Positions 15,329-19,714 of a stretch of 64,000 nucleotides of DNA are shown here, piece after piece; the first letter of the stretch is position 1; each line of letters starts with the position of its first letter. The stretch comes from Boothiomyces macroporosus (Eukaryota > Chytridiomycota > Chytridiomycetes > Rhizophydiales > Terramycetaceae), in assembly GCA_027604185.1 (NCBI GenBank), contig JADGKB010000065.1, positions 17,321 through 81,320 on the forward strand, given 5' to 3'. Below the pieces are notes generated by a model that saw only the letters and a program-made list of their open reading frames with translations, was not told the origin of the DNA and made no database searches. Made by a program: the position numbers and the translations under genes.

Positions 15329-18300
15329 ATGGAGTGTAGAGATTCAGAAGGTTGGGGGCCAATCAGCCATGAAAGGCTATACGATTTCACTATCTGTTTC
15401 CAATACATTCTCCAACAAATCCCAACAATTTTCCTGCTGTTCACTGGTAACTCAAGTTAACATAGGCTTGATATTCGTCGCTACGCTGCACAACAAACCC
15501 AGATTTCAAGTTCCAAAAACTACAGTATTCTACACGCTTCAAATCAGCTGTTTTATTCTGCTGATTTCAAACGCAATTGGAATCAAAGACAATTACTTGT
15601 TGATTACACCTACTGCTGGATACTTGCTGGCAATGGGATTCCATTACCTGGAATTATCGTACTCTAGAGTATCGCTGTACTTTTTACTCTTCTTTTGGTT
15701 GATGAACATTGTCGTCAACTTGATTGTTCTCCGCAGTTTGTACCTTGCGCGGGTATTCGAATTTACTCTGGAAAATATCGTTTACTCTACCAATTTGCTC
15801 CTTTCCTTGTTGAATTTCTTGTTGGAATTATTACCAAAGCCGGAATCGTACTACATGTCACTTGACGAGGATGAACACGTTACGCCAGAAATCAATTCAC
15901 ACATCTTTGCTAGGATATACTTTGCATGGATGGGATCTTTGATGAAATTAGGGTACCAAAAGGTGCTCACAATGGAAGATTTATGGACATTAGCCCCATC
16001 GGACTCTGCAGCTCATAATTCTGTATTGTTTCAAAAACACCTGTCTGCCCAATTAACCACAAAACGCCCTTCTCTGGTTAAAGCATTGTTCAGCACATTC
16101 TCTGGCACAGTCATCTCAACTGCTTTATTTAAATTCATGCAAGATTGTTTACAGTTTACGCAACCACAATTGCTGGCTTTAATGATGGCTTATGCTGCTC
16201 GATTTAACAAAGATAGTTCGATTGACGAAGGAATTGGAATTGCTGGGTTAATGTTGATTACTGCAATGACTCAGACAATCTTTTTACATCAATACTTTCA
16301 CGGTTGTTTTATGCTTGGAATGAGGGTACTTGTATATTCATTTTAGGTTCGCTCTACTATGATTACTGCCGTGTACAATAAAGCGCTTCGCTTGTCTAAT
16401 TCTGCTAGGCAAGGGTCTACGGTTGGGGAAATAACCAACTTGATGGCTGTTGATGCCTCCAAGTTGGCTGATTTGTGCAACAATATGAATATCTTGTGGT
16501 CTGGACCTTTCCAAATCTCCATTGCTGTTTATTTCTTGTACAAGACATTAGGCGCCTCTGTATTTGGTGGTATTGCCATTATGATTATAATGATTCCTAT
16601 CAATGGGTATATTGCATCCGTTTCTAGGGCTTTAAACAAAAAGCAAATGAAAAACAAGGATACCAGAACCAAATTGATGGACGAAATCTTGTCTGGAATC
16701 AAAGTATTAAAGCTTTATGCCTGGGAAAAGCCATTCTATGAAAAGATTAATGCAATTAGGGAGTTGGAACTGTTTACACTCAAGAATATTGCTTACCTTC
16801 AATGTTGCACCAGTTTTACATGGAGTTGCACTCCCTTCTTGGTTTCATTTACTACATTTGCTATCTATAGTGTATTCGGATCTGAACCATTGACTTCCAC
16901 CAAAGGTAATTTTATCTAATGTAGTTTTTGTTTCTCTTTCATTGTTCAATTTACTTGGATTCCCTCTAGCAGCATTCCCGCAAGTAATTGCTTCTGTAGT
17001 TGAAGCAAGTGTTTCGATTTCTCGATTACTAAAATTCTTTTTGAATGAAGAAAAGGACGACTCTGCAGTCACCCTTGAATTTGTACCACCCTTCCGTGAC
17101 GAAAATAGTCCTCCAGCTGAAAGAATTTGTGTTGAAAATGGAACTTTTGGATGGGCAAAAGATGGAGAATCTATTCTCTCTGATATTTCGTTTTCAGTAA
17201 CCGATGCTGCATTGTTGGCGGTTGTCGGCCCAGTTGGAGCGGGTAAATCTTCCTTGCTTTCTGCAATTCTCGGTGATACTTATAAACAAGGCGGCTCTGT
17301 TACTGTTAGGGGCACAATTGCATACGTTCCTCAAACCGCTTGGATTATGAACAGTACTGTAAGGGAAAATATTTTGTTTGGCCAGCCATTTGACGAAGCT
17401 TTCTATAATCAAACTGTGCAAGCTTGCGGATTAGGGCCTGATCTTGATTCTTTGATTGCGGGCGATTTCACAGAGATTGGTGAACGTGGTATCAACTTGT
17501 CAGGGGGACAGAAACAAAGAATCGCAATTGCCAGAGCTGTTTACAGCCGTGCAGATATTTACTTGTTTGATGACGCTTTATCTGCTGTTGACGCTCATGT
17601 TGGACGCCATATCTTTGATCACATTCTTGGGCCAGCTGGTTTGCTAAAGTCCAAAGCCAGAGTTTTTGTTACTCACGGTATTCACTACTTGCCTCAAGTT
17701 GATGCTGTAATGACCTTGAACAACGGAACTATTGGTGAAATGGGAACTTACCAGGCTCTAATGAGCAATAAGAGCCACTTTTACAATTTAATCAAGGAAT
17801 ATGGTAAGCAAAAGAACGAGCAGCCAAAAGAATTGAAATCATTTGCGATTGGCAAGATCTTGAAGGAAGAAAATGATAAGACGAAAACTCAAAACGGTAC
17901 CTTGATTGAAAAGGAAACCAGTGCAAAGGGAAAAGTAAACTGGAAAGTCTATCAAACCTATGCTCAATCTTGCAATTCTTGGTATGTGATTGGATTCCTT
18001 TGCATTGCTGTTTTGGCACAAGGCATATCTGTTTCTCAGAATATCTTGCTGTCGGAATGGGCAAAGTCCAACGACAATGGCAACACCAGCGTTTTGTGGT
18101 GGTTGGTAGGGTATGGATCCTTGGGTCTTCTTTACAGTTCCTTTGTGGTATTCCAAGTTTTGTTTGCGTGGGTGTTCTGTGGTATTGGCTCCGCTAGACA
18201 TTTGCATGATGATCTCTTGCGCAATGTATTACGTCTCCCTCAATCATTCTTTGACACTACCCCCCTTGGAAGAATTATCAACAGATTCTCCAAGGACCAA

Positions 18301-19714
18301 TACACTATTGACGAAGTACTGCCTAGATCCTTCTTGATGTTTTTCAGAACGCTATTCCAAGTGTTGGCAGTTTTAGCCATCAATACTTTTGGTAACGTGT
18401 ACTATCTCTTGCTAGCTATTCCACTAGGGCTTTTATACTACTATTTCCAGAGATACTATTTATCCACATCTCGTGAATTGAAACGTTTAGACAGTACTTC
18501 AAGATCGCCAATTTATCAAAACTTCCAAGAAACACTGAACGGTGTCTCTTCCATTAGGGCTTATGGACAATCGGATAGATTTATCAAGATCAATGAAGGA
18601 AGAGTTGACTACAATCAACGCGCATACTATCCATCAGTGTCTTCCAACAGATGGTTGGCAGTTAGGTTAGAATTCATTGGCTCATTGATTGTATTTGGAT
18701 CTGGAACATTTGGTGTATTAGCCCTAAAGTATCAGGATTACATGTCATCTAGTTTGCTTGGACTGATGCTGGTGTACTCTCTCAATGTTACTCAAACTCT
18801 AAATTGGATGGTTAGACAAAGTTGTGAAATCGAAACAAATATTGTGTCTGTGGAACGTATCAAGGAATACATTGAACTTCCTCAAGAAGCACCTGCTCAT
18901 ATTGAAGAAGCTCAGCCACCTCCACACTGGCCACAACACGGTGCAATTTCATTCAAGAACTACTCTACTCGGTATCGCGCGGAATTAGATCTTGTCGTAA
19001 AGAACTTGAATATCGATATCAAAGGAAAGGAAAAGATTGGTATTGTTGGAAGAACTGGGGCTGGGAAATCCTCACTTACACTGGCACTATTTAGAATTAT
19101 TGAGCCAGCTTCAGGGTTTATCTCTATCGATAATGTAAACATTTGCAATATTGGCTTGGAAGATCTCCGTAGTGCTATTTCTATTATTCCTCAAGACCCA
19201 GTTTTGTTCTGTGGATCAGTAAGATACAACCTTGATCCTTTTGGAAAGTCCTCAGACGCAGACCTGTGGGCTGCGCTAGAGAAAGCAAACTTGAAAGATT
19301 ATATTGCTTCTAGAGAAGGTGGTTTGAGTTACGAAGTAGTTCAAGGAGGCGAGAACTTTAGCGTAGGTCAGCGTCAATTGATCTGCTTGGCTCGGTAATT
19401 CTTGTTGTAACAATAGTGCATTGGTTAGAAATACCAAAATCTTAATATTGGATGAAGCAACTGCCGCCATTGATGTGGAAACTGATGCAATTATCCAGAA
19501 AACTATTCGTCAAGAGATGAAAGAGTCTACAATTTTGACTATTGCTCATCGCATTAACACTGTTATGGATAGCGATAGGTAATTCTGTTTTTAATTTAGA
19601 ATCATTGTTTTAGATAAAGGAGTTATGGTGGAGTTTGACACTCCAAAGAAATTGCTCGCCAACAAGAGCTCAAAATTCTATGCGTTGGCCAAAGAGGCTG
19701 GTCAAACAAAATAA
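15329..19714 (+). CDS. ABCC/MRP-type full ABC transporter (complete copy)
   Basis: Exports organic anions or glutathione conjugates across the vacuolar or plasma membrane; the substrate is unknown here. Removing five introns (19 nt at 15447-15465, 21 at 16326-16346, 19 at 16906-16924, 22 at 19395-19416, 21 at 19579-19599) gives 1427 aa, typical of long MRPs. The order is TMD0 and membrane span 1, then NBD1 with [19 protein letters not shown] and FDDALSAVD, then membrane span 2, then NBD2 with [17 protein letters not shown] and LDEATAAID. The start at 15329 ([11 protein letters not shown]) gives the family's usual N-terminus; reading through the first intron from 15369 would not. The last 884 bp also occur at 1-884. 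Confidence 0.96.

What the first reader, a model, noticed from the sequence alone, without database searches (positions are those of the whole stretch)
15329..19714. Genome-wide class of 18-25-nt spliceosomal introns
Seen: restoring conserved protein frames in the ABCC, CDK, POL3, EXO84, epsin, kinesin-9, CCP1, PIF1 and RAD1 genes needs removal of introns almost all 18-25 nt long, most often 19 or 20. They begin GTA(A/T/C) and end with TAA-type motifs such as taacatag, taatctag and taatgtag, so branch point and acceptor are nearly fused. After removal the CDS lengths are multiples of three in every one of these genes. Introns this small are known in few eukaryotes (nucleomorphs and some ciliates).
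Basis: partly seen in the sequence, partly recalled or inferred. Interest (0 to 1): 0.85.

Follow-up and report, generated by a model that had tools for sequence, protein, structure and literature searches.

The report
Twenty-letter introns, some in chains
A free-living chytrid fungus cuts almost all its genes with introns only about 20 letters long, among the shortest known, and sometimes strings two to four complete ones end to end with no coding letter between them.

Summary
Confirmed and extended. The genome (15.2 Mb) is the chytrid fungus Boothiomyces macroporosus, identified by its POL3 protein. A frame test that uses no motif, homology or gene model shows a sharp GT..AG excess at 19-20 nt, smaller at 21-22. 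In 245 kb, 328 single introns were modelled in 134 genes, 311 of them 19-22 nt, mostly with the branch A at position 14-15 and 4-6 nt after it. U1, U2 and U6 RNAs, U2AF65, SF1, Slu7 and Prp18 were found.

New here: complete tiny introns also lie head to tail with zero-length exons. Of 31 unique sites from strict genome-wide patterns (reversed control 0), the reading frame is best joined by removing all 2-4 units in 23; two more rest on homology, two others came outside the patterns. Proteins of relatives align gapless at array junctions in eight genes, such as BRE, cytochrome c peroxidase, Rpt1 and PEX1. Longer introns that are not arrays look rare but exist: eIF3d has a 121-nt one. I infer unit-by-unit removal of arrays; no RNA data were available to show it.

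The parts
15329..19714 (+). ABCC-type ABC transporter gene (1427 aa), five introns
   Evidence: gene model; Pfam ABC_membrane x2, ABC_tran x2, TMD0_ABC
15447..15465 (+). ABCC intron 1, 19 nt
16326..16346 (+). ABCC intron 2, 21 nt, TTCA where most introns have TAAY
16906..16924 (+). ABCC intron 3, 19 nt
19395..19416 (+). ABCC intron 4, 22 nt, inside the second ABC cassette
   Evidence: also in the duplicate copy at 565-586
19579..19599 (+). ABCC intron 5, 21 nt
   Evidence: also in the duplicate copy at 749-769
14064..15032 (-). CDK1/2-type kinase; introns 14977-14995, 14709-14727, 14492-14511, 14391-14409, 14093-14111 (19,19,20,19,19 nt)
   Evidence: aligns to CDK2 over 288 residues with one one-residue gap, which by the model's coordinates lies at the second junction
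45744..48890 (-). POL3 (DNA polymerase delta); introns 48617-48635, 48470-48488, 47921-47939, 47423-47441, 46978-46996, 46103-46121, all 19 nt
   Evidence: junctions compared with three chytrid relatives
31712..34522 (-). EXO84; 11 introns of 18-22 nt: 34297-34317, 34112-34131, 33647-33664, 33301-33319, 32991-33008, 32788-32806, 32269-32288, 32222-32243, 32082-32099, 31979-31997, 31772-31790
34926..36776 (-). epsin (ENTH); introns 36674-36693, 36588-36606, 36516-36534, 36279-36297, 35943-35962, 35551-35570 (19-20 nt)
52651..55030 (+). kinesin-9 (KIF9 domain); introns 52753-52773, 52940-52959, 53224-53242, 53525-53544, 54123-54142, 54323-54342, 54470-54489, 54610-54629 (19-21 nt)
21315..23638 (+). 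cytosolic carboxypeptidase; introns 21893-21917, 22023-22042, 22167-22185, 22353-22373, 22655-22674, 23001-23021, 23295-23314 (19-25 nt); identical copy at 2485-4808
   Evidence: identity of the two copies
23667..25698 (-). PIF1-like helicase; introns 24900-24921, 24807-24826, 24461-24479, 23891-23910, 23709-23727 (19-22 nt); identical copy at 4837-6868
   Evidence: identity of the two copies
56654..57394 (-). Rad1 checkpoint protein; introns 57288-57306, 56675-56694 (19, 20 nt)

Best explanation
These are major-class (U2-type) spliceosomal introns reduced to a nearly fixed size of 19-22 nt in the nuclear genome of a free-living chytrid fungus. SHOWN from sequence: GT donor, branch adenosine mostly at position 14-15 in a YTAAY-like site, AG mostly 4-6 nt after it, exact removal required by reading frame and by homologous proteins; a canonical U2 branch-recognition site (GTAGTA), U1 5' end (ATACTTACCTG) and U6 ACAGAGA box; genes for U2AF65, SF1, Slu7 and Prp18. 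SHOWN: some sites hold 2-4 complete units head to tail with no exon letter between, and the protein needs all of them removed (best proved where homologues align across the junction). INFERRED: U1 and U2 with SF1/U2AF recognise each unit of about 20 nt by intron definition, and the spacing, not a polypyrimidine tract, fixes which AG is used. INFERRED: arrays are removed by consecutive splicing; removing one unit sets the exon directly against the GT of the next (AG|GT), a zero-length exon as in recursive splicing. INFERRED: arrays arise because an existing intron boundary accepts another intron, by duplication in one clear case (three near-identical 19-nt units) and by an unknown route in the rest.
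For: Length peak without any motif. 311 of 328 modelled single introns 19-22 nt, 296 sense against 25 antisense motif hits. Genome-wide pattern 393 hits against 126 reversed. POL3 junctions 3-6 of 6 without a gap near the junction in three chytrid relatives; at junctions 1 and 2 small indels lie some residues away. Machinery: U2, U1, U6, U2AF65, SF1, Slu7, Prp18. Arrays: 7, 19 and 20 pattern hits with reversed control 0 each time (the first set overlaps the second). When every subset of units is tried, removing all of them is strictly the best join in 23 of 31 unique sites, in 18 of them at least twice the next best. Homologues align gapless at array junctions in cytochrome c peroxidase (RLAW|HASGTYD), Rpt1, a USP7-like MATH domain with a 4-unit array, an SPX domain with a 4-unit array, OGG1, PEX1, BRE twice and MCM7.
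Against: No transcript was seen, so splicing itself is inferred. Stepwise removal is not shown: the eIF3d gene has a 121-nt intron that is not an array and whose removal gives a gapless eIF3d protein at the junction, so the spliceosome can apparently remove something longer in one step. Array sites were chosen by patterns that demand intact units, and the chain search tried only chains of units, so both favour intact units. Of 31 sites, 3 need only one unit (L048, L052, L054), 1 is unresolved (L058), 1 is explained better by a single intron (L049), 1 is undecided (L057), and in 2 (L045, L046) the frame alone does not decide and homology does: the OGG1 array is a stop-free multiple of three. 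In some of the 23 the margin is small (L047 40 against 37 codons, L063 24 against 20). The GT-AG pass rate is slightly above all controls in five of six bins above 26 nt; one search suggests that true short-intron ends pairing with chance partners explain this. Of the 25 longer candidates that overlap no predicted short intron, only the eIF3d locus was tested by homology.
Confidence: 0.85

Rival explanations
1. The arrays are single longer introns removed in one step from the first donor to the last acceptor; inner units are remnants of recently added introns with no present role.
For: A 121-nt ordinary intron exists in eIF3d, so longer introns can apparently be removed. One array (contig 8, first) holds two identical units and a close variant, a recent duplication. 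The search tried only chains of units.
Against: In seven arrays, units that no pattern hit covered were also needed and also have donor, branch region and acceptor at 19-22 nt. Adjacent units are no more alike than random ones (0.314 against 0.325 at positions 4-11, all 29 candidate arrays), so most arrays are not fresh copies. Longer introns that are not arrays look rare: one is proved in 245 kb against 328 short ones, though most other candidates were not tested by homology.
Confidence: 0.3
2. Frameshift-tolerant decoding, assembly errors or pseudogenes make the frame breaks, and the short segments are not introns.
For: No RNA evidence; the assembly holds duplicated stretches; one nucleoporin-like gene (L027) keeps a frame break that I did not resolve.
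Against: The excess of frame joins is at 19-22 nt and for GT..AG only among six dinucleotide pairs. The segments carry donor, branch and acceptor on the sense strand (296 against 25) and lie in conserved genes such as POL3, CDK and Rpt1. The public POL3 protein of this species agrees with five of six 19-nt introns.
Confidence: 0.02
3. The introns are self-splicing or are introner-type mobile elements.
For: Arrays and high intron numbers could suggest mobility.
Against: At about 20 nt there is no room for a ribozyme core or an open reading frame (general knowledge). Random intron pairs share 0.32 of positions 4-11 and adjacent array units no more, so no family of similar copies shows in the sample.
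Confidence: 0.03

Closest known systems
Heterotrich ciliate introns, Stentor coeruleus (PMC9505925; part 1 of 6 of the text and passages read)
   Same: Nearly fixed tiny length, GT-AG, branch A at a fixed position, about 5 nt after it, U2AF and SF1 listed as present.
   Different: 15-16 nt with the branch A at position 10-11 against 19-22 nt and 14-15 here. Slu7 and Prp18 are listed as N/A in Stentor but are present here. About 18% of Stentor genes have introns; here 2.4 introns per modelled gene. The word tandem does not occur in the main text of that paper.
Chlorarachniophyte nucleomorph introns (as cited in PMC10245619, passages; and B. natans in PMC2483917, passages, which I take to mean its nucleomorph)
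   Same: 18-21 nt, many introns, donor restricted to about GT(A).
   Different: A relic endosymbiont nucleus with no branch-point signature according to PMC2483917; here a free-living fungus with a clear branch site at a nearly fixed position.
Mikrocytos mackini introns (PMC10245619, passages)
   Same: Extremely narrow size range, conserved sequence.
   Different: 16-17 nt, 224 predicted introns in a reduced parasite; here an estimated 20,000 by extrapolation.
Recursive splicing with zero-length exons (PMC5126111, PMC2773006; search listing only)
   Same: AG|GT junctions where removing one piece restores a donor for the next (principle recalled).
   Different: The listed papers treat long introns; here each piece is a complete intron of about 20 nt.
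Stwintrons of Hypoxylaceae (PMC9024468, passages)
   Same: Complex intervening sequences that need consecutive splicing; fungal.
   Different: There an inner intron splits a splice element of an outer one. Here the units are complete and abut.

Membership tests
U2-type spliceosomal intron | GT-AG ends with exact removal needed for the protein | tested here: met
U2-type spliceosomal intron | branch site complementary to U2, with U1, U2 and U6 present | tested here: met
   U2 GTAGTA, U1 5' end (37), U6 ACAGAGA on the reverse complement (90); the canonical sequences themselves are recalled. U4 and U5 not searched
U2-type spliceosomal intron | lariat formed in the spliceosome | not testable with these tools
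   needs RNA
Ultra-short intron class | narrow length range at or under about 25 nt as the dominant intron type | tested here: met
   327 of 328 modelled single introns are 25 nt or less; exception of 121 nt in eIF3d
Recursive splicing (zero-length exons) | AG|GT junction between consecutive complete splice units | tested here: met
   23 of 31 pattern sites by frame, two more by homology, two found otherwise
Recursive splicing (zero-length exons) | partly spliced intermediates, stepwise removal | not testable with these tools
   no RNA data
Stwintron | inner intron interrupts a splice element of an outer intron | tested here: not met
   units are complete and adjacent
Introner element | many copies of similar sequence | tested here: not met
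   adjacent and random units share 0.31-0.33 of positions 4-11; sample only; one array of near-identical units is the exception

The most novel reading that the evidence does not exclude
Boothiomyces intron sequence is quantised. Its spliceosome works almost only on units of about 20 nt, and most longer intervening sequences persist only as chains of 2-4 complete units taken out one by one through zero-length exons. The chains record intron gain at existing intron boundaries, perhaps still going on.
Probability: 0.55. Interest if true: 0.88.

Novelty: new variant of a known kind. Interest (0 to 1): 0.8.

Why it matters
Tiny introns were known from ciliates, a nucleomorph and a parasite. Here they dominate an intron-rich, free-living fungus that still has U2AF65, SF1, Slu7 and Prp18, although there is almost no room between branch point and acceptor. 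That separates intron shrinkage from genome reduction and from loss of these factors. The arrays are a natural test of how small a spliceosome substrate can be, whether splicing can proceed in 20-nt steps, and how introns are gained.

Tried and rejected
Considered and rejected. (1) That no intron longer than 26 nt exists: a gene finder that allows introns of 27-250 nt used 20 of them, in 15 gene models. In 11 of these the score gains less than 4 or falls. The four larger gains are L017 (+6), two window models (+10, which joins two genes, and +16, not followed up) and L027 (+88). L017 was checked against eIF3d and is a real 121-nt intron, so the strict claim was dropped. L027, a nucleoporin-like gene, keeps a frame break that I did not resolve. 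(2) Four introns spaced by 3-nt ATG exons in L023: two introns with a 48-nt exon between them fit as well, so this was dropped. (3) Tandem duplication as the general source of arrays: adjacent units are not more alike than random ones, permutation p 0.68. (4) My first count of 27 arrays among 31 sites, which broke ties toward more units: a test of every subset leaves 23 by frame, two by homology (L045, L046), and drops L049 and L057. (5) Counter-selection of 3n introns without stops: of 279 introns in models with a start codon, 20 are 3n without an in-frame stop; not pursued to a test. (6) 18S rRNA to place the organism: three requests not answered; the POL3 match settled the species. (7) Relatives' DNA: the tool says G000 has no relatives there, and I did not scan other collections for them, so whether Terramyces or Kappamyces share the introns is unknown. 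(8) Print record: Boothiomyces with intron (four papers, listing only), Chytridiomycota with intron length and Rhizophydiales (none), chytrid with short-intron terms (listing of 15 of 57), one of those on Batrachochytrium and relatives by passages (PMC5364385, no intron lengths in the three passages), Boothiomyces macroporosus with genome (none), tandem or zero-length-exon terms (listings only), short-intron terms (listings only) gave no earlier description; the library is open-access only.
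Full report
IDENTITY. The window is contig 65 (17321-81320) of a 15,203,306-base assembly. Its spliced POL3 matches a public protein of Boothiomyces macroporosus (Chytridiomycota, Rhizophydiales, Terramycetaceae) whose longest contig is listed as 81,320 bases. Apart from 13 missing residues the two proteins are identical.

OBSERVATION. Without motif, homology or gene model, I asked which GT..AG pairs join two open frames of 70 codons or more and break the unspliced frame. In 245,170 bases (20 stretches of 10 kb from 20 contigs plus window 18831-64000) the pass rate is 42 of 531 at 19 nt, 45 of 486 at 20 nt, 15 of 504 at 21 nt and 17 of 511 at 22 nt. 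Five other dinucleotide pairs give 0.6-2.3%, 0.5-3.1%, 0-0.7% and 1.2-2.1% (the first version, included eight short loci picked by a pattern). At 12-17 and 23-26 nt there is no excess. In five of six bins from 27 to 200 nt GT-AG lies slightly over all five controls; one search shows many real short-intron ends paired with chance partners. Of 214 longer candidates with good sites, 25 overlap no predicted short intron; only the eIF3d locus among them was tested by homology.

ANATOMY. An intron model trained on 107 frame-supported introns (filtered for T[AG]A near the end, eight pattern-picked loci included) and a Viterbi gene finder gave 134 genes scoring over 20 in the same 245 kb, with 328 single introns: 17 nt 1, 18 nt 5, 19 nt 83, 20 nt 134, 21 nt 70, 22 nt 24, 23 nt 6, 24 nt 2, 25 nt 2, 26 nt 1 (with introns of 27-250 nt allowed, 130 genes and 319 single introns). 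Branch A at position 14 or 15 in 259 of 306, with 4-6 nt after it in 289 of 306. G at donor position 5 in only 16%. 70% A+T. The commonest branch hexamer covers 9.8%. Extrapolated, about 20,000 introns per genome, counting duplicated stretches. Sense against antisense motif hits 296 to 25. Reversed sequence gives no gene over the threshold.

HOMOLOGY. CDK aligns to CDK2 with one one-residue gap, which by the model's coordinates lies at the second junction. POL3: junctions 3-6 of 6 are gap-free nearby in three chytrid relatives; junctions 1 and 2 have small indels some residues away. The public POL3 of this species drops [13 protein letters not shown] at junction 3, conserved in the relatives, so the public model looks wrong there.

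MACHINERY. U2 twice, with GTAGTA. U1 just under the Rfam cut-off, 68.8 of 69.5 bits, with an ATACTTACCTG 5' end. U6 with ACAGAGA. U2AF65, itself interrupted by five introns of 19-21 nt, with an RS-rich N-terminus and three RRM regions by inspection; its six-frame match lay under the TIGR01642 cut-off (230.7 of 310.3 bits), as expected for a gene cut by introns. SF1 with a KRKTRW motif like the known U2AF ligand (motif recalled). Slu7 and Prp18. Stentor's table lists Slu7 and Prp18 as N/A (PMC9505925). U2AF35, U4 and U5 were not searched.

ARRAYS. A genome-wide pattern showed three 19-nt introns touching on contig 8. Strict patterns for two touching units gave 7 hits, then 19 and 20 with looser second units, each against 0 in the reversed control. 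Merging overlapping hits and repeated copies leaves 31 sites; all were fetched. A first pass took 27 as arrays. A stricter pass tried every subset of units in those 27: removing all units is strictly the best join of upstream and downstream frames in 23 (shorter side 24-106 codons over the 27), at least twice the next best in 18. Of the other four, L045 and L046 are decided by homology, L049 is better read as one intron (as in the gene finder), and L057 is undecided. Three sites need one unit and one is unresolved. L061 is modelled with a 3-nt later acceptor by the gene finder, so its 18-nt unit could be 21 nt. Two more arrays came otherwise: a second one in the contig-8 gene and one in MCM7. 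Leaving out L049 and L057, 27 supported arrays remain with 68 units: 16 of two, 8 of three, 3 of four; units 18 nt 1, 19 nt 23, 20 nt 21, 21 nt 12, 22 nt 10, 23 nt 1 (from, which printed the 29 before this check: 72 units, total lengths 38-82 nt). In the 245 kb taken without regard to arrays there are 2 arrays and 328 single introns.

PROOF AT PROTEIN LEVEL. The contig-8 gene (BRE) holds two three-unit arrays, of 57 and 62 nt. The public proteins of Boothiomyces sp. JEL0838 and of Terramyces sp. JEL0728 align gapless at both junctions. Cytochrome c peroxidase splits its active-site motif RLAW|HASGTYD with a 42-nt array. Rpt1 (64), a MATH domain with four units (86, weak match E 8e-6), an SPX domain with four units (87), OGG1 (88) and PEX1 with three units (89) align gapless at the junction; the second SPX array has a one-residue gap about four residues away. 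MCM7 is gapless in the four of five relatives that cover the place (94). Pfam domains also span the junctions in a GH63 and a PRK/uridine-kinase-like gene (62).

HOW IT MIGHT WORK. Removing a unit puts the exon against the GT of the next, so consecutive splicing is possible in either order. In favour: in seven arrays nine units that no pattern hit covered are also needed, and other long introns look rare. Against: eIF3d has a 121-nt intron without inner units, so one-step removal of a longer intron is possible, and patterns and chain search select intact units. Internal exons of 1-40 nt number 3 of 217, where an exponential of the same mean predicts 23.5 (one ambiguous L023 gene left out; the gene finder may itself disfavour short exons), while zero-length exons occur. 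I put stepwise removal at about two in three.

ORIGIN. Only the first contig-8 array is built of near-identical units. Elsewhere neighbours are as unlike as random pairs, which means old duplications or independent insertion at a boundary.

NOVELTY. Ultra-short introns are known: 15-16 nt in heterotrichs, 16-17 nt in mikrocytids, 18-21 nt in a nucleomorph. I found no report for chytrids, and none of head-to-tail arrays of such introns, in the searches named under Tried and rejected; that library is open-access only.

Noticed in passing
window 1-7912 and 18831-26742: The two stretches are identical at an offset of 18,830 bases, so the end of ABCC, the carboxypeptidase, PIF1 and neighbours occur twice: a recent large duplication or an assembly artefact.
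   Followed up: partly
other contigs: C2, C3, C10, C20, C49/C100: The same intron sequences recur at distant places of one contig or on two contigs, so the assembly seems to hold further duplicated stretches.
   Followed up: no
C143: 578, 2599, 4620: One intron-like sequence recurs three times exactly 2,021 bases apart, probably a tandem repeat of about 2 kb.
   Followed up: no
window 47921-47939 (POL3 intron 3): The public POL3 protein of this species lacks 13 conserved residues beside this 19-nt intron, so public gene models here may contain errors from tiny introns.
   Followed up: yes
L017:2575-2695 (eIF3d): A 121-nt intron with a T-rich stretch before the branch site and no inner units; a rare long intron worth testing for regulation.
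   Followed up: partly
L027, minus strand near 4968: A gene with FG repeats, nucleoporin-like by eye, has a frame break next to a good branch/acceptor site; the short-intron and long-intron models both look wrong there.
   Followed up: no
L034, L029, L030: The U1 locus and both U2 loci have TATAAATA upstream and ATTAAAATGAAA downstream, perhaps shared snRNA promoter and 3' elements.
   Followed up: no
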